This document shows, in pieces, positions 31,265 through 64,000 of a stretch of DNA of 64,000 nucleotides (position 1 is its first letter; each line of letters starts with the position of its first letter). The notes under the pieces are model-generated. The model was not told the DNA's origin. It did no database searches and saw only the letters and a program-made list of their open reading frames with translations. The position numbers and the translations under genes were made by a program. This DNA comes from Tetracentron sinense. Taxonomy: Eukaryota; Streptophyta; Magnoliopsida; Trochodendrales; Trochodendraceae. The stretch is taken from NCBI GenBank assembly GCA_015143295.1, contig CM026570.1, positions 26,047,250-26,111,249 on the forward strand. Direction: 5' to 3'.

Positions 31265-31289
31265 AATAAAACCTTAATTCTACCTTAAA

Positions 31290-32194: not shown

Positions 32195-32320
32195 TGATAA
32201 GCATTGCAAAAGCGGAAATACAAGCGACACTTAATGCTTGAACATCAATTTTAGGAAGCTGGAAGCTTTGATCAGGCTATCAGAGGTCTTTTCTCGAAGT
32301 CATTTGGAACTTCAGGTGTG
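32195..32320 (+). pseudogene. MCM6 fragment fused to LRR exon, A3 copy
   Basis: SIAKAEIQAT-like start joined to RKLEALIRLSEVFSRSHLEL, the same internal deletion as at 23706-23850. Confidence 0.75.
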
Positions 32321-34854: not shown

Positions 34855-34980
34855 AATGATAAGCATTACAAAAGCGGGAATACAAGCGACACTAAATGCT
34901 TGAACATCAATTTTAGCTGCTGCAAACCCAATGTAGGGTCATTATGACAAGTCAAAATCACTTGAGGTGAGAAGATATTG
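34855..34980 (+). pseudogene. MCM6 first fused exon, B3 copy
   Basis: ISITKAGIQATLNA, stop, TSILAAANP, stop, GHYDKSKSLE, then a donor. The later MCM6 exons are deleted; the sequence jumps to the TTTATTTATTGAGACATT segment. Confidence 0.78.
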
Positions 34981-35384
34981 TTTATTTATTGAGACATTAT
35001 TTGTTTTTTTTTTTTATCTCATAATTGATATGGAATACTTATTCTTTTCTTATATTCAGTAGAATGAAATTGAATACTTGAAATTCAAGAAACCCCTTGA
35101 ACATGCCGGTTTAGAAGTTGAGTTAATATAATACACATGTCTATATGATCTGAAAAGCATGGAACATGCTAGTTTAGAGTTATTGATAGACATGCCTATT
35201 TGATCTTCTCATTTATTTTTGATTTATTTGTTTTGTTCTTTTAGTGTACCTTAATTTGATGTATATCAACTTGTTTCCCCACTTAAAAATGATCTCTAGT
35301 CCAATTATTGAACCTTTATTTTATTCGCAGTGTTGGCAGTATCAAATGTTTTTTCAATGTATGTTATTATGTTGCAGAATGGGT

Positions 35385-39665: not shown

Positions 39666-40475
39666 CTAAAAGGGACACATGTCTAATCTTGGTTTTTAGA
39701 AATAAATATAAAAAAAATTAACTAGAGTTAAAAAATTTTAACCTCAGGGTGTGTTTAATAGTCACTAAAAGGGACACAAGTCTAATCTTGGTTTTTAGAA
39801 ATAAATAAATTAATTAATTAACTAGAGTTAAAAAAATTTAACCATAGCGTGTGTTTAATAGTCACTAAATGGGGCACATGTCTAAAATTGCTTTTTTAGA
39901 AATAAATATCAAAAAAATTAACTATAGTTAAAAAAAACTTAACCTTAGGGTTGTTTAATAGTCACTAAAAGGGACACATGTCTAAAATTGGTTTTTAAAA
40001 ATAAATATAAAAAACATTAACTAGGGTTAAAAAAAATTTAACCTTAGGGTTGTTTAATAGTCATTAAAAGGGGCACATGTCTAATATTGGTTGTCAAAAA
40101 TGAATATCCAAAAAATTAACTAGAGTTAAAAATTCTTAACCTTAGGGTGTGTTTATTAGTACTAAAAGGGACACATGTCTAATCTTGGTTTTAAGAAATA
40201 AATATATAAAAAAAATTAACTAGAGTTAAAAATATTTAACCTTAGGGTGGTGTTTAATAGTCACTGAAAGGGACCCATGTCTAATATTGGTTTTTAGAAA
40301 TAAATATAAAAAAATTTATTATTGTTAAAAAAATTTATCCTTAGGGTGTGTTTAATAGTCACTAAAAGGGACACATGTCTAAAATTGGTTTTTAGAAATA
40401 AATATAAAAAACTTAATTAGAATTAAAAATTCTTCACCTTAGGGTGTGTTTAATAGACACATGTCTAGCCTTGGT
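39666..40475. repeat. ~100-bp satellite array, right part
   Basis: About 8 further units of the same satellite, resuming directly after the hAT-like insertion. Confidence 0.95.

Positions 40476-48067: not shown

Positions 48068-48070
<3 letters not shown>
45687..48070 (-). mobile_element. Probable minus-strand Helitron carrying a dipeptidyl-peptidase exon
   Basis: Read on the minus strand, the 3' end is a 6-bp hairpin (ACGTGC-AAA-GCACGT, 45701-45715), then CACCTTTACTAGT ending at 45687, the canonical Helitron CTAGT terminus, and it abuts a TA tract. The 5' end is not firmly placed. The minus-strand sequence at 48070-48000 (TATAAGTACAAGGAG, then TAAATACCCTCAG) resembles Helitron 5' sequence. 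Between lie a host exon (46587-46966) and otherwise unrecognised sequence (45716-46586 and 46967-48070). Confidence 0.5.
46587..46966 (-). pseudogene. Dipeptidyl-peptidase (DPP IV/S9B-like) exon fragment
   Basis: The minus strand encodes QRFVDVLDSLDTPPRVLLCS, then EQPFTIPRFKILQLQPPEIV, GIDGTILFGALYRPD and YGGPTVQLVCDSWMNTVDMR, ending in ILVWK at a GTGACT splice donor. This is the junction of the beta-propeller and the start of the alpha/beta-hydrolase domain of plant prolyl-oligopeptidase-family dipeptidyl peptidases. The catalytic serine exon lies further downstream in the family and is absent. The single exon has no stops. Confidence 0.82.

Positions 48071-48110
<40 letters not shown>
48071..48110. 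repeat. (TA)20 microsatellite at the viral integration border
   Basis: Perfect AT dinucleotides that stop exactly where similarity to the endogenous pararetrovirus begins at 48111. Confidence 0.97.
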
Positions 48111-48113
<3 letters not shown>

Positions 48114-48672
48114 AGATGTGAAATATCTTGTTTAATAAAATTAATCTCAGTTTGTAAATCTTGAATAGATATATCCTTTTCCTGGGGGGTTTTGAAATCA
48201 AATTTCTTAAAGATATCATTAACGTTGTAAGTAATAGTTGGTTTGATAGGTTGCTTACCTTTGAGTTTATTTTTGTAATCCTCTTTTGATGTTGATGCCA
48301 TTTTATCCAAGACCTACGTTTCCTGATATCCAGATCGAGGAACGTGGACAACATCGTCAAGCTTCCTATCATAGTGAATCTATTTATGAATGGAATATTG
48401 ATGCAATGACAGAATACCAAATATTAAATTTACTTCAAGAAATGACAATGGTAGGAACTGCCAGTGACAACTATGGTAAGTCCTTTGGCATACCATACGA
48501 GTCCAAAAAACAAAACAATTTTTATTCAAACAGATTTAACCAAAGCAAAAGTCGCAACTCCTGAGTTTATAACAAACTGGAATGAAGTTAAAGTTCCGGT
48601 TCAATGGTGTTTACAAAATAAACCTCCACAAAGAAAATTAACTCAACCAGATCTCAAAGATCCAACTCAAAG
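48111..48672. other. Scrambled left border of the endogenous pararetrovirus
   Basis: Four viral pieces are joined: 48111-48265 is an inverted copy of 51066-51220 (capsid-protease linker); 48260-48301 is an inverted copy of 54914-54955 (end of the 425-aa ORF); 48301-48462 is a direct copy of 58318-58479 (capsid region, following the component B variant CCAAGACC); 48466-48671 is a direct copy of 56883-57088 (C-terminal movement-protein region). Joints share 0-6 bases. No functional ORF is expected. Confidence 0.9.
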
Positions 48673-50095
48673 AATTGAACAAGAAGAAAACGAATCAAAC
48701 ACATCTCAATCACCTCAACTATCACCAACAATTTCACAAATGCATACACATTCTCAAATTGATATGATAGAAAAAGAATTTGAAATTGATAAACCATATA
48801 TTCGTAAAGACTTTAATTCTCAAGAAAATAAACCACTCAGAGATTGGTATTTCTCAAATTTTGATAAACAAAAAGAAGAACTTTTACAAACATATTATCA
48901 ATTTTTAACAAAACATAAATGTCAAATGTATTTCTTCAAATGGTTTGAAATATATGCTAAAGAAAATTCAATATGTTTTCCTTTTGCCAAATCTATAAAT
49001 GAAACAACAAAATCCTCAATTACATGGCAAACAACTACGAATAAAAATATTGAATCAATACATCCCCCATTAGAAGCCATAAAATTAACTCATCAAGATA
49101 CTCCTTTAGTAGTATCTCCTTTCAAAAGAAAAAATGATTTAAACGCTCCTAATGCTAGAGATATAGACAAAATATTTGAACAAAATAATTATACAAACCA
49201 AAATTTAAACACAATAGGTACGCAGCTCAACAGAGTAGAAAATTTAATTCAAAAAGAAAAAATTTTACCTCAAGCTGAACCACAAAAACAAAATGATAAA
49301 CCAATGTTTATACCACATGAAATTCCAAAATAATTGTCTTCACAATTATCTTCTAGAAATTTAATGGAAACAATTGATGATAAATTAAACAAATTAAATA
49401 CGATAATCTACAAATGTGCTCAAGTCCCTGACACGCCTGAAACACAAAGTTCACATATCAACATGGTAAAATTAATATTAGATTCTGATCCAGATTTTGA
49501 TCCAAACACAATTGATCCAAGTGCTATAAATGTTTTATCAAAACTTCCAAACATTCTAGAATCTGACTCAGATGATTTATCTGATGTTGCAGATATAGAT
49601 CAATTAGAACAAAATTTCTCAAAAGACTTAAACAATTCATTAGACAAAATCCGTAATTCAATTAATCGTTTAGATTGGAAACAAGCTCCAACTAAAAACT
49701 TTTATCCAAAACCTACGTTTCCTGATATCCAGATCGAGGAACGTGGACAACATCGTCAAGCTTCCTATCATAGTGAATCTATTTATGAATGGAATATTGA
49801 TGCAATGACAGAATACCAAATATTAAATTTACTTCAAGAAATGACAATGGTAGGAACTGCCTATAGGAACAGACATGATTCATCTGATCATTCTGTTGCT
49901 CAAATGTTAGTTGCTGGTTTTACTGGTCAACTCAAAGGTTGGTGGGATCATTGTATCACACAAACTGATCGACAAACAATTCTCAATGCTTTCAAAACAA
50001 CAAGTGATGGAACCACAATTCAAGATGAGAATAATGACAATTCAAGATGCTGTTGCAATTTTAATCTTTTCAATCGCAAAACATTTTATAGGTGA
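48673..50095 (+). pseudogene. Component A capsid N-terminal region, interrupted
   Basis: Near-identical to 57290-58720 of component B, with a TAA at 49331-49333 (CAA in B) and a one-base deletion near 50037 that shifts the frame. It includes the acidic low-complexity region and the WxxDxxTEYQ stretch (NIDAMTEYQILN) preceding the capsid core with KGWWDHCI. In caulimovirids this part of the ORF1 polyprotein is the coat protein, which packages the DNA. A 201-nt in-frame deletion at 48666-48671 removed the linker between movement and coat domains. Confidence 0.85.
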
Positions 50096-53000
50096 TCCTT
50101 CCAAAATCAAAGATAGATCTTCTGATCTAATCAACAATCTCAAATGTAGAAAACTTCAAGATTTCAGATACTACAAAGATACATTCCTTACGAAGGTTAT
50201 GCTTCGTGATGATTGTGGCAAATCTTACTGGAAAGAAAGATTTCTTTCTGGTTTACCAAATGTTTTTGCAGAAACAATTAGGGAAAAAATTAGAGACAAA
50301 AACAATGGAGATATTCCTTATTACAAATTAACTTATGGTGATTTAATCACATTAGTCAATACAGAAGGTTTAATCTTATGTAGAGCTTTAAGACTCAAAG
50401 ATAAACTCAAAAGAGATCAAGTTACTAGCAGAAAAGAACTTGGTTCTTTCTGTGAACAATTTGGTTTTGATTGTGACAACGATAAAACTCACAAACACAA
50501 AAAATCAAAACACAAATACATTAAACCTCACAAAAACAAATATCCTCATAAAGGAATAGAAAAAGATAGCCAATATTATAAACAGAAATATTCTAAACAG
50601 AAATCGAAATCTCGATATCACAAAAGAAATCCTTCAAAAATGTCAAAATGGTTTTCTCAATCTAAACCATCCTCTTCAAAACAAAATAAATTTACTAAAC
50701 CTCCAATTTGTTTCAATTGTGGAAAAGAAGGTCATCTCAAACTAAATTGTCCCGAAGAAGCTAAAAAGAAAATTAATGTAATTAATTCTTTAGACATTTC
50801 CGAAGAAATCAAAGATCAATTAAAACAATTAATTCTCAATTCATCTGATGATGAAATTCCTCAAATTGATGAAATTTACACAAGTACTGATTACTCAATT
50901 TCTGATTCTTCTGATTCAGAACCAATTAAATCAAACTGTCAATGTCCTCATTGTGTTAGAAGTATTAACATGATTACTCAAGAACAAACATTTCTATTAG
51001 ATTTAATTGATAAAATTCAAGATCCTTTGTTACAAAAAGAATGCTTAATCAAATTAAAAGATAATCTCAAAGGTAAGCAACCTATCAAACCAACTATTAC
51101 TTACAACGTTAATGATATCTTTAAGAAATTTGATTTCAAAACCCCCCGGGAAAGGGATATAACTATTCAAGATTTACAAACTGAGATTAATTTTATTAAA
51201 CAAGATATTTCACATCTCAAACATAATACTCATTTTGAAATTAAAGATATCATAGACATTTCCGAAGAAATCAAAGATCAATTAAAACAATTAATTCTCA
51301 ATTCATCTGATGATGAAATTCCTCAAATTGATGAAATTTACACAAGTACTGATTACTCAATTTCTGATTCTTCTGATTCAGAACCAATTAAATCAAACTG
51401 TCAATGTCCTCATTGTGTTAAAAGTATTAACATGATTACTCAAGAACAAACATTTCTATTAGATTTAATTGATAAAATTCAAGATCCTTTGTTACAAAAA
51501 GAATGCGTAATCAAATTAAAAGATAATCTCAAAGGTAAACAATCTATCAAACCAACTATTACTTATAACGTCCATGATATCTTTAAGAAATTTGATTTCA
51601 AAACCCCCCGGGAAAGGGATATAACTATTCAAGATTTACAAACTGAAATTAATTCAATTAAACAAGATATTTCACATCTCAAACTTAATACTCATTTTGA
51701 AATCAACCAACTTAAAAACCAAATTTCTCAAAAATATTATATACCACACAGACTTGAAATCACTTCAGATAATGAAGAACCAAATGATCAAAATAGTAAT
51801 GGACAAGATGAACAAACAAGTAAAAATCAGGATTACATCAATTTAATCACACAAACTATTCAACAAAAATGGTTAGTCAACATATCAATTATAGTAAACA
51901 AAGAATTTAGACTTGATACAATAGCCCTTATTGATTCAGGTGCTGATTTAAATTGTATTCAAGAAAGTTTAATTCCAACCAAGTATTTTGAAAAAACAAA
52001 AGAAATTTTACACACTGCAAGTGGAAGTCAACTTAATATAAACTACAAATTAACCAAAGCTCACGTATGTAATGAAGGGATATGTATCTCTACACCCTTT
52101 ATCTTAGTAAAAAATCTTACAAGAGAAGTAATTCTAGGTTCTCCTTTTATAACCTTAATCAAACCTTTCACAGTAACTCATGAAGGAATTCAAACAATAA
52201 TTAATACTCAAACTATTAATTTCCAGTTTATCAATCCACCACATTTAAAAAACATTAATATAATCAAGGAATATTCCATATTCAAAAATCATCATATTCA
52301 TTTAATAACTCAAAAACAAAAACAAATTTGTTTTCTAAAAAATGAAATACAATATAAAAAGATTGATGAACAACTCAATGATTGGAAATTGCAACAACAA
52401 ATTAAGAATTTTGAAGAAAAACTCAAAACTGATGTATGTTCAGACTTTCCTAATGCCTTCTGGCACAGGAAAAAACATATTGTTAAATTACCTTACTTCA
52501 AAGAATTTAATGAAACAAATATTAAAACTAAAGCAAGACCAATTCAAATGAATCATGAATTATTAGAATATTGCAAAAAGGAAATTCAAGAATTACTCAA
52601 AAAGAACTTAATTCGTAAATCTCAATCTCCTTGGAGTTGTGCTGCTTTCTATGTTCAGAAAAATGCTGAATTAGAAAGAGGAACACCAAGATTAGTAATC
52701 AATTATAAACCACTCAATGATGTTTTACAATGGATAAGATATCCGATACCAAACAAACAAGATCTTCTACAAAGACTAAACAATGCAAAAGTATTCTCAA
52801 AATTTGATATGAAATCAGGATTTTGGCAAATACAAATTTCAGAACAAGATAAGTACAAAACTGCATTCACAGTTCCCTTTGGACACTATGAATGGAATGT
52901 CATGCCGTTTGGTTTAAAAAATGCTCCTTCAGAATTTCAAAATATAATGAATGAAATTTTTAATCCTTATACACAATTTTCAATTGTTTACATTGATGAT

Positions 53001-53810
53001 GTCTTAATATTCTCAAATTCAATTGATCAACATTGGAAACATCTCAATACATTCTATTCAATAATCAAACGAAATGGCTTAGTAATTTCCTCATCAAAAA
53101 TTCAATTATTCCAAACAAAAATAAGATTTCTTGGTCATAATATTCAATTTGGAACTTTTATACCAATCAATCGATCTATCGAATTTGCCAGCAAATTTCC
53201 TGATGAAATAAAAGATAAAACTCAATTACAAAGATTTTTAGGAAGTCTTAATTATGTATCAAATCATTGCAAAGATATCAGTCAAATTTGCAAACCTTTA
53301 AGAGAAAGGCTTAAAAAGAATCCTCCTCCTTGGACAGAGGAACACACACAAATAATAAAACAGATTAAATTATTAGTAAAAACTCTCCCTTGTTTACATT
53401 TTGCTGATATAAACCTTCCAAAAATTGTAGAAACTGATGCTTCTGAATTAGGTTTTGGAGGTATTTTAAAACAAAAAAGAGATAATTTAGAAGAATTAAT
53501 TAAATTCACTTCAGGAACTTGGAATCAGGCACAAAGGAATTATTCTACAATCAAAAAAGAAATTTTATCAATAGTATTATGTATTTCAAAATTTCAAAGT
53601 GATTTAATAAACCAAACTTTTCTTATTAAAGTAGATTGCAAAGCTGCAAAAAATGTTTTACAAAATGATGTTCAAAATATTGCTTCAAAACAAATATTTG
53701 CTAGATGGCAGGCAATATTATCCGTTTTTGATTTCCAAATAGAATATATCAAAGGAGAAAATAACTCTATCCCTGATTTCTTAACCCGTGAATTCTTGCA
53801 GGGTCGATAG
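49911..53810 (+). CDS. Component A: capsid C-terminus, aspartic protease, reverse transcriptase, RNase H
   Basis: Authentic coding begins about 50037, after the frameshift; the first ~40 residues are out of frame. Rough residues: capsid core to 200; CCHC zinc knuckle CFNCGKEGHLKLNC (267-280); a duplicated linker (50791-51714); retroviral-type protease LIDSGAD (~672-678); reverse transcriptase from ~900 with KFDMKSGFWQI and YIDD (~1027-1030); RNase H with ETDAS (~1173), KKEIL (~1216), KVDCKA (~1241) and PDFLTR (~1288). All catalytic acids are present. The family copies viral RNA into DNA inside capsids. No LTR or integrase is found, so this is a pararetrovirus, not a retrotransposon. Confidence 0.93.
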   Translation: MLVLLVNSKVGGIIVSHKLIDKQFSMLSKQQVMEPQFKMRIMTIQDAVAILIFSIAKHFIGDPSKIKDRSSDLINNLKCRKLQDFRYYKDTFLTKVMLRDDCGKSYWKERFLSGLPNVFAETIREKIRDKNNGDIPYYKLTYGDLITLVNTEGLILCRALRLKDKLKRDQVTSRKELGSFCEQFGFDCDNDKTHKHKKSKHKYIKPHKNKYPHKGIEKDSQYYKQKYSKQKSKSRYHKRNPSKMSKWFSQSKPSSSKQNKFTKPPICFNCGKEGHLKLNCPEEAKKKINVINSLDISEEIKDQLKQLILNSSDDEIPQIDEIYTSTDYSISDSSDSEPIKSNCQCPHCVRSINMITQEQTFLLDLIDKIQDPLLQKECLIKLKDNLKGKQPIKPTITYNVNDIFKKFDFKTPRERDITIQDLQTEINFIKQDISHLKHNTHFEIKDIIDISEEIKDQLKQLILNSSDDEIPQIDEIYTSTDYSISDSSDSEPIKSNCQCPHCVKSINMITQEQTFLLDLIDKIQDPLLQKECVIKLKDNLKGKQSIKPTITYNVHDIFKKFDFKTPRERDITIQDLQTEINSIKQDISHLKLNTHFEINQLKNQISQKYYIPHRLEITSDNEEPNDQNSNGQDEQTSKNQDYINLITQTIQQKWLVNISIIVNKEFRLDTIALIDSGADLNCIQESLIPTKYFEKTKEILHTASGSQLNINYKLTKAHVCNEGICISTPFILVKNLTREVILGSPFITLIKPFTVTHEGIQTIINTQTINFQFINPPHLKNINIIKEYSIFKNHHIHLITQKQKQICFLKNEIQYKKIDEQLNDWKLQQQIKNFEEKLKTDVCSDFPNAFWHRKKHIVKLPYFKEFNETNIKTKARPIQMNHELLEYCKKEIQELLKKNLIRKSQSPWSCAAFYVQKNAELERGTPRLVINYKPLNDVLQWIRYPIPNKQDLLQRLNNAKVFSKFDMKSGFWQIQISEQDKYKTAFTVPFGHYEWNVMPFGLKNAPSEFQNIMNEIFNPYTQFSIVYIDDVLIFSNSIDQHWKHLNTFYSIIKRNGLVISSSKIQLFQTKIRFLGHNIQFGTFIPINRSIEFASKFPDEIKDKTQLQRFLGSLNYVSNHCKDISQICKPLRERLKKNPPPWTEEHTQIIKQIKLLVKTLPCLHFADINLPKIVETDASELGFGGILKQKRDNLEELIKFTSGTWNQAQRNYSTIKKEILSIVLCISKFQSDLINQTFLIKVDCKAAKNVLQNDVQNIASKQIFARWQAILSVFDFQIEYIKGENNSIPDFLTREFLQGR
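50791..51714 (+). repeat. In-frame 462-nt tandem duplication in component A polyprotein
   Basis: TAGACATTTCCGAAGAAATC begins both copies (50791 and 51253). Each encodes 154 residues covering DISEEIKDQLKQL, an acidic SDSSDSEP stretch, a CQCPHC motif and a coiled-coil-like QDLQTEIN-IKQDISHLK. Component B has one copy (59415 onward). The downstream copy is closer to B (KQSIKP, VHDIF); the upstream copy has KQPIKP and VNDIF. Confidence 0.93.
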
Positions 53811-53812
53811 TC

Positions 53813-55090
53813 ATGTCTAAAAAAGTTCAAACCTCTAAACCCAAAACCTCTCAACAAAAGTCTTGGTATGATAAAGTTCAGGATGAACTTCAACATCCAG
53901 TTCCATTACCCCCATTAGCCTTAACGTTCGGATCAAGTTCCATGCAACCAACCAAATCTTATGCAAAAGCTATGTCTACCACTGGTTCTCAAAAGGGTTC
54001 TGTTGTCCCTCAACAACACCAGGCAATTAGGGTTAATGACCCAATGCCTCTTTCAAAATCACAATATCTTTTAAAACCTCAAAAGATGTCTTTATTTCCA
54101 ATAGAAAAGGGATTTTCAAATTCAAATCCAAACATAGTTGCTCAAAACTATTTTCATCAAAACTGGGAATATCCCACTACTGATTTTCGTAAAAAACAAG
54201 AATACTATGAATACATTTTAATTGATACTCAATCTATCTTTCTTACTCATTATTATGATCAAGATTGTATTGTTCATTCTACTTGTAGAATTGGGCATGT
54301 TATTTCTCCAAAAGAGTGGGGTCAATGTCTCAGTACACCAAAACAATTTGTCACCAAGTTTGTGCCCACAACTTATCCAAAAGAGCAACCACAACCTCCT
54401 CAATTATTCAATTACTGGGATTATCGTCATGCCTGGTACAATTGTTTTTACCTTCAAAATGATAGTCGTCAACACTCATGGTGTTTTTTATTCAAATCTT
54501 ATTTCAATTATTCTGTACCTCTCTGGTTTCTTGATTGGTGGGTATACTTTGGTCCCATCCCTGAAATCCTTCCTCCACCTGTTTTACAAGGATTCCATTT
54601 ATTCCAATCCAATTACCTAATCCCAAAAGATTTATCCCACTTTTCACATATTTACCTTTTCTTTTCATATTTCAAATTAGCCTGGATAACTTCTTGTTCT
54701 TTTTCCTTTGTTCCTTCTCCTTCGCAATCCTTCTATTATTTAGGAAGACAATTCAAAGTCAAGTGGTGGGATGAGTTCAAACCATACAAAGCCGTTCCAA
54801 AAGCAATCAGTATTTGGTTAGTAGACAATCCTTCTCTAACCTTATCTTCACCAACTCATTCAACAAGTTCAAACAAATTTGTTCAAGTAAAGACAAACAC
54901 TCAAAGCAATTTAATGGCATCAACATCAAAAGAGGATTACAAAAATAAACTCAAACAAGCGTTATTAGAATTGGAAGAAGAAGACAGCGACAATGGTTCT
55001 CAAGCATCTGTCAATCTGGGAAACGACAATGAAGATGATTGCTATGGAGTGTTCCCGGCAATTCAACAAAGAAAAAATACAAGTCAGTAA
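53813..55090 (+). CDS. Component A ORF2, 425 aa, unknown function
   Basis: Opens 2 nt after the polyprotein stop. The N-terminus is basic and serine/proline-rich (KKVQTSKPKTSQQKS). The middle is rich in aromatic residues (WYNCFYLQND, WFLDWWVYFGPIPE, KWWDEFKPYK). The C-terminus is acidic (ELEEEDSDNG) after ASTSKEDYKNKLKQ. The frame is intact. Florendoviruses carry a second ORF of unknown role after the RNase H, and position and size fit. No known domain is recognised; it has no counterpart in component B. A splice-acceptor-like CTTGCAG ends at 53801. Confidence 0.85.
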   Translation: MSKKVQTSKPKTSQQKSWYDKVQDELQHPVPLPPLALTFGSSSMQPTKSYAKAMSTTGSQKGSVVPQQHQAIRVNDPMPLSKSQYLLKPQKMSLFPIEKGFSNSNPNIVAQNYFHQNWEYPTTDFRKKQEYYEYILIDTQSIFLTHYYDQDCIVHSTCRIGHVISPKEWGQCLSTPKQFVTKFVPTTYPKEQPQPPQLFNYWDYRHAWYNCFYLQNDSRQHSWCFLFKSYFNYSVPLWFLDWWVYFGPIPEILPPPVLQGFHLFQSNYLIPKDLSHFSHIYLFFSYFKLAWITSCSFSFVPSPSQSFYYLGRQFKVKWWDEFKPYKAVPKAISIWLVDNPSLTLSSPTHSTSSNKFVQVKTNTQSNLMASTSKEDYKNKLKQALLELEEEDSDNGSQASVNLGNDNEDDCYGVFPAIQQRKNTSQ

Positions 55091-55386
55091 AAGTGGACAG
55101 AAAAAGCAGTCAAAAGAAGCACAGCAAGCAGACAAAAGGAGACAGCAGTACAAAGCAAACAGTGAAAGCAGTCAAAAGTAAACAGTACGGCAAAGATTCG
55201 TTCAATTCAAAACAATCAAGAGTTACTAAGGGTTAAAGCAAAAGTCATTCAACCGAAAGCAAGTTACTCAAGTAAAAGCAACCGAAAGCAAGTAAAAGCA
55301 GAAGCATTCAACATTCACTCAAGGTAAAACAAAAGAGATTCGAGTTAAAGCATTCAACACTCAAGTACCAAGATTCGGCAACTCAA

Positions 55387-55393
55387 CTATAAG
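55387..55393 (+). promoter_or_regulatory. Candidate TATA box of the pregenomic RNA promoter
   Basis: CTATAAG, conserved at 63236-63242 in component B at the same distance from the primer site. No experimental support. Confidence 0.4.
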
Positions 55394-55701
55394 TTCAGAA
55401 GTTCAAGCCATCTACAAGGGAGCTCAATCAGACAACCCAAGTCCTTAGTCCTTAGTCTCAAATTTGTAATCTTTTTCTTTCTTTCTTAGTTCAACATTCC
55501 TCTTCTATTGTAACATTCTACTCTCTTCTCTTTTCCTTTTTTCTTTCAAGTATGGTGCTGTAAGCGGGAGATTACTGCATCCAATCTGTAACCATCAGTC
55601 CAAAAGGTATTTTCATTTATCAAATGTATGTTTGATTTCATCAATATATGAAATAGTTTTCTTTCTCAAATATTATGCCTTTCGCTCTTCAAAATTTTTT
55701 A

Positions 55702-56011
55702 CACTGCACACTGTTTAACTGAGAGACAGCTGTAAGCCGCGGCTATTCTGCACTGGAATAGAAAAGCGCAACTGTGTCCCTAATCTCAGGACTAACTAGA
55801 ACAGTACTGTGCACCCAATCATATTATTTCCGCAATTTTATATGATCCATGCCTGGCACTGCACACTGTTTAACTGAGAGACCGCTGTAAGCCGCGGCTA
55901 TTCTGCACTGGAATAGAAAAGCGCAACTGTGTCCCTAATCTCAGGACTAACTAGAACAGTACTGTGCACCCAATCATATTATTTCCGCAATTTTATATGA
56001 TCCATGCCTGG
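55702..56011 (+). repeat. Two direct copies of a 155-bp leader segment
   Basis: 55702-55856 and 55857-56011 both run from CACTGCACACTGTTTAAC to GATCCATGCCTGG and are almost identical (one visible difference, GAGACAG/GAGACCG). Component B has a single copy at 63554-63708. They contain CTGTAAGCCGCGGCTATTC. Confidence 0.97.
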
Positions 56012-56020
56012 GATAGAAAA

Positions 56021-56033
56021 TGGTATCAGAGCC
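56021..56033 (+). other. Pararetroviral primer-binding site (tRNA-Met)
   Basis: TGGTATCAGAGCC is complementary to the 3' end of plant initiator tRNA-Met, used by Caulimoviridae to prime minus-strand DNA. It conventionally marks nucleotide 1 of the circular genome. The second copy is at 63718. Confidence 0.95.
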
Positions 56034-56292
56034 AAGGAAGTAGGTAAGGCGACTGATTAGAAGATAGAGATATTGATGAATAGTATGTATTGCTGTTATA
56101 ATCAATTCTCAAAAGAATTATACAGTGCTGAGGACTGTGTTCCTGAACGTTGCTGTGTAAGTCCCGCAGTAAGACCACGTGTGTTGGCAGAAGGGCGATT
56201 AGAACGGTAATACACAGGGTAGTCACTTCGTAATTCTCGATAATTTATTATCGCAATAATTCATAATATTCTGACTATATATCTTTCTTATA

Positions 56293-57300
56293 ATGAGTTC
56301 TTTATTTAGATCCATGTCTTCGAGATCATGTTCATACAGTAATAGTAATCAAATAGTAAATAGTGAAGAAAGAAATTTAACAAACATAGAAAAGAAATTA
56401 GATAATTGGAAAATTCCTAAAATACCAATTCAACAAATTTATAAAAAAGGAACTTTTGATTTCTCAAGTGATTATTCAATCAAAACTGTTGAACAAACAA
56501 TTTCTTTATCTGAATCTCAAGAAGAATTCAAATTATTTAGTGAAAAAGCAATTGAACAACACAAATTAAAATACAGATTTCTGCATGTTGGAATGGTCCA
56601 AGTAGCAGTCAAATCCTTAATTCGTGAAGGATTAAATGCTCAAGTGTTATTATGTCTTCGTGACTGTAGACATAATCAATTCAAAGATTCCTTGTTAGGA
56701 ATGGTTCAATCGACACTATACAATGGTCCAATCTATTTTGATTGTTCCCCAAATTTCTCTCTTTCAATTACAGACACAAATCTATTAGAATCTTTGGTGT
56801 TAAATCTTCAAACAAATGGTATTGACATGTTACCAGGGTCACAACCCTTAACATTGATATACAGAGTCCATTATAAAGTTATGACAACTATGGTAAGTCC
56901 TTTGGCATACCATACGAGTCCAAAAAACAAAACAATTTTTATTCAAACAGATTTAACCAAAGCAAAAGTCGCAACTCCTGAGTTTATAACAAACTGGAAT
57001 GAAGTTGAAGTTCCGGTTCAATGGTGTTTACAAAATAAACCTCCACAAAGAAAATTAACTCAACCAGATCTCAAAGATCCAACTCAAATAAGAGAACAAG
57101 CTGATGGTAAAGTCATTATTGACTTTTCTTCATCAGAATTCCAAATAGATGATTTAGATTCCAGAAGATTCAATTTTGAACCTTCTAGATCTTCTTGCTC
57201 CTCAATTCCTTCAAAATCTAAAGTCAATCTGTCAGGATTAAGAAATTTAAAAATTCCTCAACCAATTTACACAGTTAAAACTCCTCAAAGAATTGAATAA
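56293..57300 (+). CDS. Component B movement protein region (ORF1 N-terminus)
   Basis: 335 codons from the first ATG after the leader. Central part: KLKYRFLHVGMVQVAVKSLI, LLCLRDCRHNQFKDSLLG and NGPIYFDCSPNFSLSITD, the pattern of caulimovirid cell-to-cell movement proteins of the 30K superfamily, including the conserved aspartate region. Such proteins enlarge plasmodesmata. It ends at TAA 57298-57300 where component A has CAA, so the stop is a C-to-T lesion that separates it from the capsid frame. In florendoviruses both belong to one polyprotein. Confidence 0.88.
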   Translation: MSSLFRSMSSRSCSYSNSNQIVNSEERNLTNIEKKLDNWKIPKIPIQQIYKKGTFDFSSDYSIKTVEQTISLSESQEEFKLFSEKAIEQHKLKYRFLHVGMVQVAVKSLIREGLNAQVLLCLRDCRHNQFKDSLLGMVQSTLYNGPIYFDCSPNFSLSITDTNLLESLVLNLQTNGIDMLPGSQPLTLIYRVHYKVMTTMVSPLAYHTSPKNKTIFIQTDLTKAKVATPEFITNWNEVEVPVQWCLQNKPPQRKLTQPDLKDPTQIREQADGKVIIDFSSSEFQIDDLDSRRFNFEPSRSSCSSIPSKSKVNLSGLRNLKIPQPIYTVKTPQRIE

Positions 57301-57357
57301 GAAGAAAACGAATCAAACACATCTCAATCACCTCAACTATCACCAACAATTTCACAA

Positions 57358-60300
57358 ATGCATACACATTCTCAAATTGATATGATAGAAAAAGAATTTG
57401 AAATTGATAAACCATATATTCGTAAAGACTTTAATTCTCAAGAAAATAAACCACTCAGAGATTGGTATTTCTCAAATTTTGATAAACAAAAAGAAGAACT
57501 TTTACAAACATATTATCAATTTTTAACAAAACATAAATGTCAAATGTATTTCTTCAAATGGTTTGAAATATATGCTAAAGAAAATTCAATATATTTTCCT
57601 TTTGCCAAATCTATAAATGAAACAACAAAATCTTCAACTACATGGCAAACAACTACAAATAAAAATATTGAATCAATACATCCCCCATTAGAAGCCATAA
57701 AATTAACTCATCAAGATACTCCTTTAGTAGCATCTCCTTTCAAAAGAAAAAATGATTTAAATGCTCCTAATGCTAGAGATATAGACAAAATATTTGAACA
57801 AAATAATTATACAAACCAAAATTTAAACACAATAAGTACGCAGCTCAACAGAGTAGAAAATTTAATTCAAAAAGAAAAAATTTTACCTCAAGCTGAACCA
57901 CAAAAACAAAATGATAAACCAATGTTTATACCACATGAAATTCCAAAACAATTGTCTTCACAATTATCTTCTAGAAATTTAATGGAAACAATTGATGATA
58001 AATTAAACAAATTAAATACGATAATCTACAAATGTGCTCAAGTCCCTGACACGCCTGAAACACAAAGTTCACATATCAACATGGTAAAATTAATATTAGA
58101 TTCTGATCCAGATTTTGATCCAAACACAATTGATCCAAGTGCTATAAATGTTTTATCAAAACTTCCAAACATTCTAGAATCTGACTCAGATGATTTATCT
58201 GATGTTGCAGATATAGATCAATTAGAACAAAATTTCTCAAAAGACTTAAACAATTCATTAGACAAAATCCGTAATTCAATTAATCGTTTAGATTGGAAAC
58301 AAGCTCCAACTAAAAACTTTTATCCAAGACCTACGTTTCCTGATATCCAGATCGAGGAACGTGGACAACATCGTCAAGCTTCCTATCATAGTGAATCTAT
58401 TTATGAATGGAATATTGATGCAATGACAGAATACCAAATATTAAATTTACTTCAAGAAATGACAATGGTAGGAACTGCCTATAGGAACAGACATGATTCA
58501 TCTGATCATTCTGTTGCTCAAATGTTAGTTGCTGGTTTTACTGGTCAACTCAAAGGTTGGTGGGATCATTGTATCACACAAACTGATCGACAAACAATTC
58601 TCAATGCTTTCAAAACAACAAGTGATGGAACCACAATTCAAGATGAGAATAATGAACCAATTCAAGATGCTGTTGCAACTTTAATCTTTTCAATCGCAAA
58701 ACATTTTATAGGTGATCCTTCCAAAATCAAAGATAGATCTTCTGATCTAATCAACAATCTCAAATGTAGAAAACTTCAAGATTTCAGATACTACAAAGAT
58801 ACATTCCTTACGAAGGTTATGCTTCGTGATGATTGTGGCAAACCTTACTGGAAAGAACGATTTCTTTCTGGTTTACCAAATGTTTTTGCAGAAACAATTA
58901 GGGAAAAAATTAGAGACAAAAACAATGGAGATATTCCTTATGACAAATTAACTTATGGTGATTTAATCACATTAATCAATACAGAAGGTTTAATCTTATG
59001 TAGAGCCTTAAGGCTCAAAGATAAACTCAAAAGAGATCAAGTTACTAGCAGAAAAGAACTTGGTTCTTTCTGTGAACAATTTGGTTTTGATTGTGAAAAG
59101 GATAAAACTCACAAACACAAAAAATCAAAACACAAACACATTAAACCTCATAAAAACAAATATCACCATAAAGGCATAGAAAAAGATAGTCAATACTATA
59201 AACAAAAATATTCTAAACAAAAATCGAAACCTCGATATCAAAAAAGAAATCCTTCAAAAATGTCAAAATGGTTTTCTCAATCTAAACCATCTTCTTCAAA
59301 ACAACCAAACAAATTCACTAAACCGCCAATTTGTTTCAATTGTGGTAAAGAAGGTCATCTCAAACCAAATTGTCCCGAAGAAGCTAAAAAGAAAATTAAT
59401 ATCATTAATTCTTTAGACATTTCTGAAGAAATCAAAAATCAATTAAAACTTTTAATTCTCAATTCATCTGATGATGAACTTCCTCAAATTGATGAAATTT
59501 ACACAAGTACAACTGATTACTCAATTTCTGATTCATCTGATTCAGAACCAATTAAGTCCAACTGTCAATGTCCTCAATGTGTTAAAAGTATTAATATGAT
59601 TACTCAAGAACAAACATTTCTTTTAGATCTAATTGATAAAATTCAAGATCCTCTCTTACAAAAAGAATGTTTAATCAAATTAAAAGATAACCTCAAAGGT
59701 AAACAATCTATCAAACCAACTATTACTTATAACGTCCATGATATCTTTAAGAAATTTGATTTCAAAACCCCCCGGGAAAGGGATATAACTATTCAAGATT
59801 TACAAACTGAAATTAATTCAATTAAACAAGATATTTCACATCTCAAACTTAATACTCATTTTGAAATCAACCAACTTAATAACCAAATTTCTCAAAAATA
59901 TTATATACCACACAGACATGAAATCACTTCAGATAATGAAGAACCAAATGATCAAAATACTAATGGACAAGATGAACAAACAAGTAAAAATCAGGATTAC
60001 ATCAATTTAATCACACAAACTATTCAACAAAAATGGTTAGTCAACATATCAATTATAGTAAACAAAGAATTTAGACTTGATACAATAGCCCTTATTGATT
60101 CAGGTGCTGATTTAAATTGTATTCAAGAAGGTTTAATTCCAACCAAGTATTTTGAAAAAACAAAAGAAATTTTACACACTGCAAGTGGAAGTCAACTTAA
60201 TATAAACTACAAATTAACCAAAGCTCACGTATGTAATGAAGGGATATGTATCTCTACACCCTTTATCTTAGTAAAAAATCTTACAAGAGAAGTAATTCTA

Positions 60301-60972
60301 GGTTCTCCTTTTATAACCTTAATCAAACCTTTCACAGTAACTCATGAAGGAATTCAAACAATAATTAATACTCAAACTATTAATTTCCAGTTTATCAATC
60401 CACCACATTTAAAAAACATTAATATAATCAAGGAATATTCCATATTCAAAAATCATCATATTCATTTAATAACTCAAAAACAAAAACAAATTTGTTTTCT
60501 AAAAAATGAAATACAATATAAAAAGATTGATGAACAACTCAATGATTGGAAATTACAACAACAAATTAAGAATTTTGAAGAAAAACTCAAAACTGATGTA
60601 TGTTCAGACTTTCCTAATGCCTTCTGGCACAGGAAAAACCATATTGTTAAATTACCTCACATCAAAGAATTTAATGAAACAAGTATTAAAACTAAAGCAA
60701 GACCAATTCAAATGAATCATGAATTATTAGAATATTGCAAAAAAGAAATTCAAGAATTACTCAAAAAGAACTTAATTCGTAAATCTCAATCTCCTTGGAG
60801 TTGTGCTGCTTTCTATGTTCAGAAAAATGCTGAATTAGAAAGAGGAACACCAAGATTAGTAATCAATTATAAACCTCTCAATGATGTTTTACAATGGATA
60901 AGATATCCAATACCAAACAAACAAGATCATTCTACAAAGGCTAAACAATGCAAAGATTTTCTCAAAGTTTGA
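57358..60972 (+). CDS. Component B capsid, zinc knuckle, protease and RT N-terminus
   Basis: 1204 codons, nearly identical to component A. Capsid core around KGWWDHCITQ and RKLQDFRYYKDTFLTKVMLR; zinc knuckle CFNCGKEGHLKPNC (~659-672); single linker copy; protease LIDSGAD (~912-918); then the conserved KARPIQMNHELLEYCKKEIQ and SPWSCAAFYVQK of the RT fingers. A one-base insertion near 60929 shifts the frame and ends it at TGA 60970-60972, before the RT active site. The start is taken at the first ATG after the 57298 stop; translation in the virus would have begun upstream. Confidence 0.92.
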   Translation: MHTHSQIDMIEKEFEIDKPYIRKDFNSQENKPLRDWYFSNFDKQKEELLQTYYQFLTKHKCQMYFFKWFEIYAKENSIYFPFAKSINETTKSSTTWQTTTNKNIESIHPPLEAIKLTHQDTPLVASPFKRKNDLNAPNARDIDKIFEQNNYTNQNLNTISTQLNRVENLIQKEKILPQAEPQKQNDKPMFIPHEIPKQLSSQLSSRNLMETIDDKLNKLNTIIYKCAQVPDTPETQSSHINMVKLILDSDPDFDPNTIDPSAINVLSKLPNILESDSDDLSDVADIDQLEQNFSKDLNNSLDKIRNSINRLDWKQAPTKNFYPRPTFPDIQIEERGQHRQASYHSESIYEWNIDAMTEYQILNLLQEMTMVGTAYRNRHDSSDHSVAQMLVAGFTGQLKGWWDHCITQTDRQTILNAFKTTSDGTTIQDENNEPIQDAVATLIFSIAKHFIGDPSKIKDRSSDLINNLKCRKLQDFRYYKDTFLTKVMLRDDCGKPYWKERFLSGLPNVFAETIREKIRDKNNGDIPYDKLTYGDLITLINTEGLILCRALRLKDKLKRDQVTSRKELGSFCEQFGFDCEKDKTHKHKKSKHKHIKPHKNKYHHKGIEKDSQYYKQKYSKQKSKPRYQKRNPSKMSKWFSQSKPSSSKQPNKFTKPPICFNCGKEGHLKPNCPEEAKKKINIINSLDISEEIKNQLKLLILNSSDDELPQIDEIYTSTTDYSISDSSDSEPIKSNCQCPQCVKSINMITQEQTFLLDLIDKIQDPLLQKECLIKLKDNLKGKQSIKPTITYNVHDIFKKFDFKTPRERDITIQDLQTEINSIKQDISHLKLNTHFEINQLNNQISQKYYIPHRHEITSDNEEPNDQNTNGQDEQTSKNQDYINLITQTIQQKWLVNISIIVNKEFRLDTIALIDSGADLNCIQEGLIPTKYFEKTKEILHTASGSQLNINYKLTKAHVCNEGICISTPFILVKNLTREVILGSPFITLIKPFTVTHEGIQTIINTQTINFQFINPPHLKNINIIKEYSIFKNHHIHLITQKQKQICFLKNEIQYKKIDEQLNDWKLQQQIKNFEEKLKTDVCSDFPNAFWHRKNHIVKLPHIKEFNETSIKTKARPIQMNHELLEYCKKEIQELLKKNLIRKSQSPWSCAAFYVQKNAELERGTPRLVINYKPLNDVLQWIRYPIPNKQDHSTKAKQCKDFLKV

Positions 60973-60973
60973 T

Positions 60974-62773
60974 ATGAAATCAGGATTTTGGCAAATACAA
61001 ATTTCCAAACAAGATAAGTACAAAACCGCATTCACAGTTTCCTTTGGACACTATGAATGGATTGTTATGCCATTTGGTTTAAAAAATACCCCTTCAGAAT
61101 TTCAAAATATAATGAATGAAATTTTCAACCTTTACACACAATTTTCAATTGTTTATAACAATGATGTTTTAATATTCTCAAATATAATTGACCAATACTG
61201 GAAACATCTCAATATATTCTTTTCAACAAACAAGCATAATAATTTAGCTATATCAAAAATTCAATTATTAACAAAAATAAGATTTCTTGATATTCAATTC
61301 GGAACTTTTACAAAAAACAATCGTTCTATTAAATTTGCTAACAAAATTCCTAATGAAGAAAATTACAAAACTCGGTTTTGGCAAATAAAGGATATGAATC
61401 AACCTAAAACATATTTAGAAAAATTTCAAATTAGCAATTCAAAAATAAATAGAATATTAGTATGGAAAAATCTTAGTATAATAAAAATACCAATTAATGT
61501 TGACTTATTACAATATTTGGCATTAAGGATTTACAACAGATATCTTCCTAAAAGTTTTGCATATTATCTTAGAAAAGAGGATTTATTTCCAAAACAGTTA
61601 TTCAGTTTTCTCAAAAACCTATTTTATCTATATTTAGAAAATATGAATTATCAAATATTATTATCTTATTTTCAGGATATGATGGCTCGAGAAAGGTCTG
61701 CAAAAGGATACAATTTTGGAAATACTTTCTTACAAAATGTTCAACAAAGAAAATACATTTATCCTCATAAAACAAAAGATTTATCAAATTTGGAAATATG
61801 TCTTTTAGATAATTTATGGCATGCTAAATCTCTCAATTCTACTCAATTAATGGAAAAATCAATTAATGCTTTGCAGCATTATTTTCTATCAAAAGCCCAA
61901 ACTTCCAAAAATACAAACACCTCTTATGTTTCCTTAACTAATAGGATCAATGAAAATCCTCAATTCTTCTCAAAATTAATTTTCAATCCAAAATTATCTT
62001 TATGTGAAGCTTTCAAAGTCAAGTTAAGAAATAAAGTCCGTACCCAACTGCCAGTTGGCATCCAACAACTCATTTTCTCAAAATCCCTTGACCAGTATCA
62101 CAAATGGATTCATGTGTTTTCTCAAATTGAAGCCAGAAATTTTCCATTCCATAAATCAAGACTCATCCATTGCCATCCTTACAATCTTCTCAAAATTTTT
62201 AATACAGAACCAGAAGACCAAGAAGAAAAAATTTGGTTATTTGAAAATGGATTTATTAGAGGAATTTATTCATATAGCCAAAAAGACTTGGAAGGATTCC
62301 CTCAATGTATCATTGATATATGTTTGCAACAAAGATTAGCAAAGCCAGACCCATTCCTTTTCTTAGAAATCCTAAGCTCCTGTCCAGAATGGTCTGATAA
62401 TGGTTACCGTCTTTTCCCAACCAGTCATGTAATTCTTATTCATGACAATGACCCATGTTACAATGTTACTCCTTGCAAAAGAACAAAACTCAATTATAAC
62501 AAACTAGATATTCAAACCCGAAAGATCTGGGGTCTTAGTTATATTTACCAAACCCTCAAAACCTGTCCTTGGAATGTCATGATTGACACAGGAAGGATTG
62601 TCATTTTTGCCAAACCAGTTCCAAGCAATACAGATTTCCATCCAATTATATATCAAATTACCAATGGGTTAGTGAATTCTTCACACGATTTTTATCTTGA
62701 CTTACAACGAGCATGGGGACCTCAAATAAATGAAGAAGATTGGCCAATAGAAGAAATAATACAGGAAGATTAA
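60974..62773 (+). CDS. Component B: decayed RT remnant joined to a unique ~466-aa region
   Basis: 599 codons. Residues 1-133 align with component A RT (MKSGFWQIQIS, MPFGLKN) but the active-site box is YNND (61154-61165) instead of YIDD, and small in-frame deletions follow. RT similarity ends near 61373. RNase H is absent. The rest is unlike component A: LLQYLALRIYNRYLPKSFAYY, LPVGIQQLIFSKSLDQYHKW, NDPCYNVTPC, DLQRAWGPQINEEDWP. No domain is recognised. Two in-frame ATGs at 61679/61682 lie just after a splice-acceptor-like TTTCAG, which could give a separate 364-aa protein. Confidence 0.82.
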   Translation: MKSGFWQIQISKQDKYKTAFTVSFGHYEWIVMPFGLKNTPSEFQNIMNEIFNLYTQFSIVYNNDVLIFSNIIDQYWKHLNIFFSTNKHNNLAISKIQLLTKIRFLDIQFGTFTKNNRSIKFANKIPNEENYKTRFWQIKDMNQPKTYLEKFQISNSKINRILVWKNLSIIKIPINVDLLQYLALRIYNRYLPKSFAYYLRKEDLFPKQLFSFLKNLFYLYLENMNYQILLSYFQDMMARERSAKGYNFGNTFLQNVQQRKYIYPHKTKDLSNLEICLLDNLWHAKSLNSTQLMEKSINALQHYFLSKAQTSKNTNTSYVSLTNRINENPQFFSKLIFNPKLSLCEAFKVKLRNKVRTQLPVGIQQLIFSKSLDQYHKWIHVFSQIEARNFPFHKSRLIHCHPYNLLKIFNTEPEDQEEKIWLFENGFIRGIYSYSQKDLEGFPQCIIDICLQQRLAKPDPFLFLEILSSCPEWSDNGYRLFPTSHVILIHDNDPCYNVTPCKRTKLNYNKLDIQTRKIWGLSYIYQTLKTCPWNVMIDTGRIVIFAKPVPSNTDFHPIIYQITNGLVNSSHDFYLDLQRAWGPQINEEDWPIEEIIQED

Positions 62774-63717
62774 AATATACCAACCAAGATTGATGCGTCA
62801 TTTATTTTGACAAATCAGAGATAAAACAATTAAAGCAACTTGATATAGACGATCGTGATAAGATATTTCAAACAGAAGACAACAGTTCAAATCAAGAAAA
62901 CAATAGCAGAACAAGTGCAAAAGTGAAAAGGTGAACAGGAAGCGGCAAAAATCAGTCAGCAAGCAGCAGACTCGTCAACAGCATTCAATGCAAAAGCAGA
63001 ATTGTGCAGAATCCAACAACAAATCGACAAAAGTACAAAGCAAACAGTAAAAGTTAAACAGTACAGTCAAAAGAAATCAAGATTCTTCAAACAGTCAAAA
63101 GCAGAAGACAAGTTACTCAAGTAAAAGCAACCGAAAGCAAGTGAAAACAAAAGCATTCAACATTCACCAGAGGTAAAGCAAAAGAGATTCGAGTTAAAGC
63201 ATTCAACACTCAAGTATCAAGATTCGTCAGAAGGCCTATAAGTTCAGAAGTTCAAGTCATCTACAAGGGAGCTCAATCAGAAACCCAAGTCCTTAGTCCT
63301 TAGTCCCAAACGTGTAATCTTTTTCTTTCTTTCTTAGTTCAACATTCCTCTTCTATTGTAATCTTCTACCCTCTTCTTCTTTTTTCTTTTTTTTCTTTCA
63401 AGTATGGTGCTGTAAGCGGGAGATTACTGCATCCAATCTGTAACCATCAGTCCAAAAGGTATTTTCATTTATCAAATGTATGTTTGATTTCATTAATATA
63501 TGAAATAGTTTTCTTTCTCAAATATTATGCCTTTCGCTCTTCAAAAATTTTTACACTGCACACTGTTTAACTGAGAGACCGCTGTAAGCCGCGGCTATTC
63601 TGCACTGGAATAGAAAAGCACAACTGTGTCCCTAATCTCAGGACTAACTAGAACAGTACTGTGCACCCAATCATATTATTTTCGCAATTTTATATGATCC
63701 ATGCCTGGGATAGAAAA
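62774..63717 (+). other. Component B non-coding region shared with component A
   Basis: AAAGCA/CAGTCAAAAG-rich sequence, then from about 63110 near-identity with 55255-56020, including CTATAAG (63236), the pyrimidine tract, GTGCTGTAAGCGGGAG and one 155-bp segment (63554-63708). Confidence 0.85.
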
Positions 63718-63730
63718 TGGTATCAGAGCC
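63718..63730 (+). other. Second pararetroviral primer-binding site (tRNA-Met)
   Basis: TGGTATCAGAGCC, identical to 56021-56033. The interval between them, 7,697 bp, is a plausible full circular genome length for this family. Confidence 0.95.
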
Positions 63731-63951
63731 AATTATCAAATGGTGCTCAAATTGTCATTTCTATCCCAGGGTAGTCACTTCGTAATAGTTTGACTTAAAC
63801 AATAATGAAAATACCTTTTACACTGCACACGGTAATACACAGGGTAGTCACTTCCTAACAAGTGATTTCTTTGATAAACGTTATCAAAAGACTTTTATCC
63901 CAGGCAATAGATGGCTTGACTGTAAACACCATTGGATGCAGCATTATTTTC
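63731..63951. other. Scrambled patchwork just after the primer site
   Basis: Short viral pieces in both orientations: CAGGGTAGTCACTTCGTAAT (direct, as at 56215), inverted CCTGGGATAGAAA-type sequence at about 63757-63770, inverted AAAGGTATTTTCATT (63803-63817, as 55604-55618), and a joint of TTTTTACACTGCACAC-like sequence to CGGTAATACACAGGG near 63820-63850. No gene. Confidence 0.75.
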
Positions 63952-64000
63952 TAGTATGTATTGCTGTTATAATCAATTCTCAAAAGAATTATACAGTGCT
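63952..64000 (+). other. Start of a third pararetrovirus copy
   Basis: Matches the leader at 56081-56129 base for base until the window ends. Confidence 0.88.

What the first reader, a model, noticed from the sequence alone, without database searches (positions are those of the whole stretch)
48111..64000. Two different genome components of a bipartite pararetrovirus in one head-to-tail array
Seen: two units share near-identical capsid/protease coding sequence and the same promoter-leader-primer region, but diverge downstream. A has YIDD RT + RNase H + a 425-aa ORF; B has movement protein, a YNND RT remnant, no RNase H and a different ~466-aa region. Known: some florendoviruses have been described as bipartite, which is unique among viral retroelements. 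Inference: these are the paired segments of one such virus, with B dependent on A for reverse transcription and both sharing packaging and priming signals.
Basis: partly seen in the sequence, partly recalled or inferred. Interest (0 to 1): 0.92.

Follow-up and report, generated by a model that had tools for sequence, protein, structure and literature searches.

The report
Plant virus fossil with dependent partner
Two related virus genomes were captured side by side in a plant chromosome; one belongs to a type with a full set of genes, the other lacks an essential enzyme part but carries a conserved gene of unknown function, and copies scattered over the plant genome suggest the two travelled and diversified together for a long time.

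Summary
An insert of about 16 kb (48111 to at least 92 nt past the window), TA repeats at both edges, is a 5'-truncated unit A (capsid-protease-RT-RNase H-ORF2) head-to-tail with unit B (MP-capsid-protease-RT remnant-unrelated ~466-aa region). In 29 of 29 other loci it follows RT and some protease. The B domain is under purifying selection (dN/dS 0.09-0.31), has no recognised relatives and stands where RNase H would be. B's RT relaxes toward the junction (0.09 to 0.48); A's stays 0.04-0.10. A and B share 14 of 79 clusters, 0.05 expected, and their non-homologous regions co-diverge (r 0.80, 1/20000). But A does not look like a complementary half: pieces read at other A loci include MP and capsid. 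Best reading: an autonomous florendovirus-like virus plus a long-term non-autonomous partner; it works much like, but does not meet, the published definition of a bipartite florendovirus. YNND and the frame break between protease and RT are damage of this copy.

The parts
48070..48110 (.). (TA)n tract at the left edge of the insert
   Evidence: a second TA tract follows the right edge in L009
48106..48683 (.). scrambled left edge of unit A: inverted capsid piece 48106-48279, capsid duplicate 48301-48462, MP piece 48465-48683
   Evidence: self-BLAST
48684..50790 (+). unit A: DUF7588, DUF7746 and capsid region, broken by an in-frame stop and a frame change
50791..51706 (+). 462-bp tandem duplication in the capsid region of A, 97.4% alike, single in B
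51708..52610 (+). unit A: protease (RVP) region
52611..53230 (+). unit A: reverse transcriptase with YIDD
53231..53810 (+). unit A: RNase H, not found in B
53792..55090 (+). unit A: ORF2-like 432-codon open frame in another frame than RT-RNase H, related to the C-terminal part of a Salix protein that also has MP and DUF7746
   Evidence: dN/dS 0.093 among 12 copies
55091..56274 (+). unit A intergenic region and leader; primer site at 56021; 155-bp tandem duplication
56275..57300 (+). unit B: movement protein
   Evidence: PF01107, 4.3e-24
57301..60972 (+). unit B: DUF7588, DUF7746, capsid, zinc knuckle, protease in one open frame
60817..61453 (+). unit B: decaying RT remnant (YNND here; YIDD or YVDD in 23 of 29 other loci), ending in a hypervariable junction
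61454..62773 (+). unit B: conserved B domain of unknown function in the place of RNase H and most of ORF2; this copy lacks a stretch of about 44 residues near 62685 that the 12 other copies of alignment A2 have
62774..63730 (+). unit B intergenic region; homology to A resumes at 63109; primer site at 63718
63731..64000 (+). scrambled leader pieces at the right edge; the match to the insert continues at least 92 nt past the window

Best explanation
The array is one captured concatemer of two co-infecting genomes of a florendovirus-like pararetrovirus. Unit A is a (here truncated) copy of an autonomous virus. Unit B is a copy of a non-autonomous partner that makes its own movement, capsid and protease proteins plus a conserved B domain of unknown function, but lacks RNase H and carries an eroding RT. 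B carries the same promoter, leader and primer site as A, so its RNA is most likely packaged and copied by A's RT-RNase H. Recombination with A keeps B's 5' part and intergenic region A-like, the effect fading toward the B domain. Shown: structure, dispersal, selection, no RNase H in the loci held, repeated co-location, co-divergence, intermixed A/B phylogeny of the shared region. Inferred: supply of RT-RNase H in trans, co-packaging, A's autonomy (from pieces at several loci), and what the B domain does (perhaps capsid assembly, transmission or silencing suppression).
For: B-unique DNA: 40 scored of 159 candidates, this copy included; B-domain protein: 92 match rows from 91 scored of 474 candidates, a few loci split over two rows. 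RT and some PR (71-946 nt) lie upstream in 29 of 29 other loci, and intergenic sequence follows in the same direction in 24 of 29 (my reading). At C6 leader, MP, CP, PR, RT, B domain and IGR follow in order. Six of 29 loci have one open frame from within PR through RT and the B domain, one of them (L015) ending about 30 residues early. Median dN/dS among 30 copies: RT 0.23, B domain N half 0.31, C half 0.09. RT dN/dS climbs 0.085, 0.106, 0.204, 0.476 toward the junction in B (the last from 18 of 30 copies), but is 0.04-0.09 in 4 A copies over the same intervals. No RNase H match at E <= 1 in 30 of 30 B loci held. 14 compound clusters of 79, 0.05 expected. A-unique and B-unique distances correlate: r 0.796, 1 of 20000 permutations, 10 loci; r 0.916, 0 of 20000, 12 loci. 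In the PR tree 15 A and 27 B rows are intermixed (12 changes, shuffled mean 12.5; A as one clade rejected, p-AU 1.8e-73). Of 16 non-viral flank pieces one pair is alike.
Against: RT reads YIDD or YVDD in 23 of 29 B loci and dN/dS is low in its 5' half, so a working RT in B is not ruled out; I attribute it to recombination with A. The A/B sister pairs at single loci could partly reflect gene conversion after integration, and in the RT tree the window's A and B are not sisters. 45 of 79 clusters hold B without A and 20 A without B, both lists capped. Five of 11 A loci had no MP where expected, and no A copy was read from end to end. Helper supply and packaging were not observed.
Confidence: 0.65

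Rival explanations
1. True bipartite virus: A and B both needed, the B domain supplying an essential function that A alone lacks.
For: Co-divergence of non-homologous parts, strong selection on the B domain, B copies next to older A copies (C5, C4:35, C22, C23:20), and a published precedent (PMC4241990).
Against: Pieces read at A loci include every gene recognised in monopartite florendoviruses; 20 of 79 clusters hold A alone (capped lists); nothing shows that A needs B.
Confidence: 0.25
2. Local rearrangement: B arose once at this locus by a foreign insertion or deletion and is no viral genome.
For: The insert has scrambled edges, a tandem duplication and broken frames.
Against: B-specific DNA on many chromosomes with conserved order and mostly different flanks, purifying selection, B-domain relatives at 36-37% identity with CP and PR upstream.
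Confidence: 0.02
3. B is an independent virus that merely shared hosts with A and picked up A's promoter, capsid and protease region by recombination, without dependence on A.
For: Mosaic identity profile; a distant relative (L083, L084) with CP, PR and B domain and no RT match.
Against: No RNase H found in 30 of 30 B loci and no RT match in the two distant loci read, so copying by the known route needs a helper; co-divergence with A.
Confidence: 0.07
4. The A/B sister pairs within loci are only post-integration gene conversion (not exclusive of the others).
For: All five compound loci with both units in the PR tree (window, C6, C23, C2:52, C1049) pair with themselves, and the units lie within 15 kb.
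Against: A copies with no B near them in the lists (L047, L048, L051) also fall among B copies, and co-divergence is seen in regions with no shared sequence.
Confidence: 0.2

Closest known systems
Bipartite florendoviruses, components A and B (Vitis vinifera B and D viruses, Oryza sativa B virus, Sorghum bicolor virus; PMC4241990)
   Same: B-type polyprotein with MP, CP and protease and a C-terminal extension; near-identical intergenic regions; compound A+B insertions; TA-repeat integration sites.
   Different: Here A loci carry MP and CP; B keeps an eroding RT and no RNase H was found; the C-terminal extension shows no detectable homology to ORF2, although an ORF2 tail survives downstream in a few copies.
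Non-autonomous grass pararetroviruses, eRTBVL2 with autonomous partner eRTBVL (PMC5491270)
   Same: MP, CP, PR kept, RT/RNase H function lost, an unknown domain in its place, shared and recombining regulatory region, many fossils.
   Different: Different virus group; no SFKTE-like pattern in the 30 B loci held; here RT is retained and decaying, and the unique regions of the two partners co-diverge.
Monopartite florendoviruses (two-ORF type, PMC4241990)
   Same: Unit A type: MP-CP-protease-RT-RNase H plus a separate ORF2; primer site of the sequence that PMC13308828 calls tRNA-Met (passage).
   Different: Accompanied by the B genome type; RT phylogeny against reference florendoviruses was not tested.

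Membership tests
Florendovirus (unit A) | ORF1 polyprotein with MP, CP with zinc finger, protease, RT, RNase H1 | tested here: met
   Domains by Pfam in the window except MP; MP and capsid start at 6 of 11 further A loci. Frames in the window are broken and no A copy was read end to end.
Florendovirus (unit A) | A second ORF after ORF1, usually in another frame | tested here: met
   53792-55090 overlaps the end of the polyprotein frame in another frame.
Florendovirus (unit A) | ORF2 related to ORF2 of known florendoviruses | not tested
   No reference ORF2 was held. No Pfam match; its one hit at E <= 0.01 is a Salix protein with MP and DUF7746.
Florendovirus (unit A) | RT groups with florendoviruses in a phylogeny | not tested
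   No reference caulimovirid RT sequences were held or typed.
Florendovirus (insertion) | Frequent location at TA simple repeats | tested here: met
   TA tracts at both edges of this insert; long TA tracts in 4 of the 29 other B loci.
Bipartite florendovirus, component A | ORF1 N-terminus truncated, CP partly or wholly deleted | tested here: not met
   A loci with MP and CP.
[quoted passage not shown]
   C6 unit: one frame from within MP on, apart from one in-frame stop.
Bipartite florendovirus, component B | RT missing | tested here: not met
   RT present but relaxed in this lineage; no RT match in the distant lineage L083 and L084.
Bipartite florendovirus, component B | C-terminal extension homologous to ORF2 | tested here: not met
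   BLASTP and two profile comparisons negative.
Bipartite florendovirus, A/B pair | Intergenic region over 90% and MP over 87% identical between A and B | tested here: met
   Intergenic pieces 94.5% and 98.9%, MP piece of 219 nt 98.2% in the window.
Non-autonomous pararetrovirus | RT/RNase H function absent | tested here: inconclusive
   RNase H not found in 30 of 30 loci; RT retained with YIDD or YVDD in 23 of 29 other loci but relaxed.
Non-autonomous pararetrovirus | Multiple independent fossils and a regulatory region shared with a partner | tested here: met

The most novel reading that the evidence does not exclude
A two-component reverse-transcribing virus in which component B carries an essential protein of a new family, the partnership having lasted through the whole radiation of the virus seen in this genome, with one B lineage that has already lost RT and another caught while its RT erodes: a sequence record of how a monopartite retroelement virus splits in two.
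Probability: 0.3. Interest if true: 0.82.

Novelty: new variant of a known kind. Interest (0 to 1): 0.62.

Why it matters
Divided genomes are rare among reverse-transcribing viruses and rest on fossil evidence that is open to the objection of helper viruses. Co-divergence of the non-homologous parts, together with the gradient of relaxed selection in RT, gives a direct way to test long-term partnership against chance co-infection. The B domain is a conserved viral protein family without recognised relatives in the searches made here.

Tried and rejected
Structure of the B domain from a single sequence: mean pLDDT 34.8, so no fold search was made. Relatives of the B domain: none at E <= 0.01 among 2137 and 1952 candidates from 5.8 billion proteins; none confirmed in viral contigs, where records of this genome may be left out; no Pfam match with the window's protein or the two distant ones and three weak ones (E 0.045-0.25), each in one of 13 members; weak PDB matches (flagellar motor switch, 0.22; one WD repeat of 38 residues, 0.0035) that I hold to be chance. 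Homology of the B domain to ORF2: not found. SFKTE-like pattern: absent from 30 loci. Local rearrangement: rejected. A DNA search with MP did not complete; instead I read stretches at the expected distance from 11 chosen A loci: MP matches in 6 (two full-length, one short by two bases, three partial), none in 5.

What my counts leave out: one search scored 40 of 159 candidates, 40 of 204, 91 of 474. The 79 clusters used 76 B places; rows under 50% identity were dropped. Mantel loci were 10, then 12, of the 14 compound clusters; at C1049, C4:14.7 and C2:62 one B of several was used. The PR tree held 15 of 16 A rows and 27 of 30 B rows, the others giving no match of 600 bases. The dN/dS of A in RT rests on 4 copies.
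Full report
WHAT IS THERE. The window is G000:C20:26047250-26111249 of a 1.16-Gb genome in 1479 contigs. From about 48111 to at least 92 nt past the window lies one insert, with a TA tract at its left edge (48070-48110) and another after its right edge. It holds two units in the same direction. Unit A starts with scrambled pieces, among them 219 nt of MP, then DUF7588, DUF7746, capsid, zinc knuckle, protease, RT, RNase H, an ORF2-like frame (53792-55090) and an intergenic region with primer site TGGTATCAGAGC at 56021. Unit B has MP, the same capsid and protease region, an RT fragment, an unrelated region to 62773, and an intergenic region with the primer site at 63718.

HOW ALIKE THE UNITS ARE. 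In blocks of 100 nt, identity is 97-100% over much of the capsid and protease, dips to 93-96% in one capsid stretch, and then falls through RT: 98, 93, 93, 85, 86, 70% before homology ends. On the other side it climbs from 85-95% to 98-100% toward the promoter. RT differs between the two at dS 0.42 and dN 0.105; of four capsid/protease pieces three give dS 0-0.02 and one 0.12. The unique part of B is thus flanked by transition zones, as expected if recombination keeps replacing the shared parts.

B IS A DISPERSED GENOME TYPE. B-specific DNA gave 40 scored places of 159 candidates; the 39 besides this one are 78-90% identical and lie on many chromosomes and some small contigs. In the 29 other loci held, RT and some PR (71-946 nt) lie upstream in 29 of 29, and intergenic sequence lies downstream in the same direction in 24 of 29 by my reading; the exceptions are L013, L014, L023, L029 (contig end) and L035. 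At C6 leader, MP, capsid, PR, RT, B domain and intergenic region follow in order. Six of 29 have a single open frame from within PR through RT and the B domain (L012, L015, L021, L025, L032, L036), L015 ending about 30 residues before the others. RT reads YIDD or YVDD in 23 of 29, YTND in one, and the motif was not found in five. Of 16 non-viral flank pieces of 250 nt or more, only L037/L038 are alike (99%), so most of these copies look like separate integrations.

SELECTION. Median dN/dS over 427 pairs of 30 copies: RT 0.227, B domain N half 0.312, C half 0.093. Along RT the B copies give 0.085, 0.106, 0.204, 0.476 toward the junction (the last from 18 copies and 130 pairs); four A copies give 0.044, 0.047, 0.087, 0.073. 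ORF2 gives 0.093 among 12 A copies. B's RT is therefore under little constraint near its end, while the B domain beyond it is strongly constrained. RNase H gave no match at E <= 1 in any of the 30 B loci held. The low values at the 5' end of RT speak for either function or steady replacement from A; I prefer the second because identity to A falls in the same direction.

A IS PROBABLY COMPLETE. A-specific DNA matched at 40 scored candidates of 204 (41 rows; 79-97% identical besides this one). Upstream of A at C8 lie MP (partial), capsid, PR and RT; at C16 only part of the capsid, PR and RT. Of 11 further A loci read at the expected distance, six have MP: full-length at C443, C5 and (bar two bases) C813, partial at C4, C8 and C20; five have none there. 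At C5, PR-RT also entered the PR tree (L058). A type thus has the gene set of a monopartite florendovirus, put together from pieces at several loci; no A copy was read from end to end.

A AND B BELONG TOGETHER. With 15-kb linkage there are 10 compound clusters of 53 (expected 0.025), and 14 of 79 after adding B places from the protein search (expected 0.05). Older A copies at C5, C4:35, C22 and C23:20 have older B copies next to them. Distances of the A-unique and B-unique regions, which share no detectable sequence, correlate over 10 compound loci (r 0.796; 1 of 20000 permutations; without C6 r 0.79, 3 of 20000; without C6 and the window r 0.751, 18 of 20000) and over 12 (r 0.916, 0 of 20000), the last figure being helped by one deep split. 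In the shared PR region the A and B labels are intermixed (12 changes, shuffled mean 12.5, A as one clade rejected with p-AU 1.8e-73), and A and B of one locus group together at all five loci with both in the tree (window, C6, C23, C2:52, C1049); the A of C2:62 pairs with a B on contig C743 whose flank matches that locus. In the RT tree, with only two A rows, the window's A and B are not sisters. Gene conversion inside loci may contribute, but A copies without a listed B nearby (L047, L048, L051) also fall among B copies, while four others (L052, L058, L059, L060) form an outer group.

ORIGIN OF B. Three B copies (L037, L038, L040) keep codons of the end of ORF2 downstream of the B frame, so B probably descends from an A-like genome in which RNase H and most of ORF2 were replaced. 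A second lineage (L083, L084; B domain 36-37% identical) has capsid, protease and B domain in one long frame with no RT match, and L084 has a longer ORF2 tail. Whether the present lineage is losing RT or regained part of it from A cannot be told. The B domain has no recognised relatives in the searches made.

COMPARISON WITH PRINT. I read passages and section 7 of PMC4241990, the outline with abstract, passages and section 6 of PMC5491270, and passages of PMC9719215, PMC10377300 and PMC13308828. Bipartite florendoviruses and compound insertions are published, as are non-autonomous pararetroviruses that share recombining regulatory regions with a partner. What I did not see in these passages or in the listings of the five paper searches is a B component with a domain unrelated to ORF2 beside a complete A, or co-divergence of the two unique regions. 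Supplements were not read.

VERDICT. A real and dispersed two-genome system, best read as autonomous virus plus long-term non-autonomous partner; not a member of the bipartite florendoviruses as defined, though it works much like one.

Noticed in passing
G000:C6:28885520-28890545: B followed by an inverted A at another locus; its A-specific part is 97% identical to the window's A, the closest relative listed, while its B is 90%.
   Followed up: partly
L083, L084 (C4:3.10-3.12 Mb): A distant virus lineage with capsid, protease and B domain in long open frames (1459 residues in L083) and no RT match; two inverted copies about 13 kb apart.
   Followed up: partly
window 36944-38231 and 39666-40460: Two blocks of a tandem repeat with a period near 99 bp, about 84-93% alike between offsets.
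   Followed up: no
window 33467-34023, 24942-25502, 15360-15767: Long palindromes matching their own reverse complement at 77-83%, inside larger duplicated stretches.
   Followed up: no
window 14497-18258 and 24158-27899; 22807-26453 and 31264-34981: Large direct duplications of 3.6-3.8 kb, 89-92% alike.
   Followed up: no
window 63731-63951: Short pieces of the intergenic region in new order after the primer site of B, a scrambled junction.
   Followed up: no
P0005 (Salix suchowensis, 751 aa): A predicted protein with MP, DUF7746 and an ORF2-like C-terminus and no RT in its Pfam list, perhaps a B-like or a deleted form in willow.
   Followed up: no
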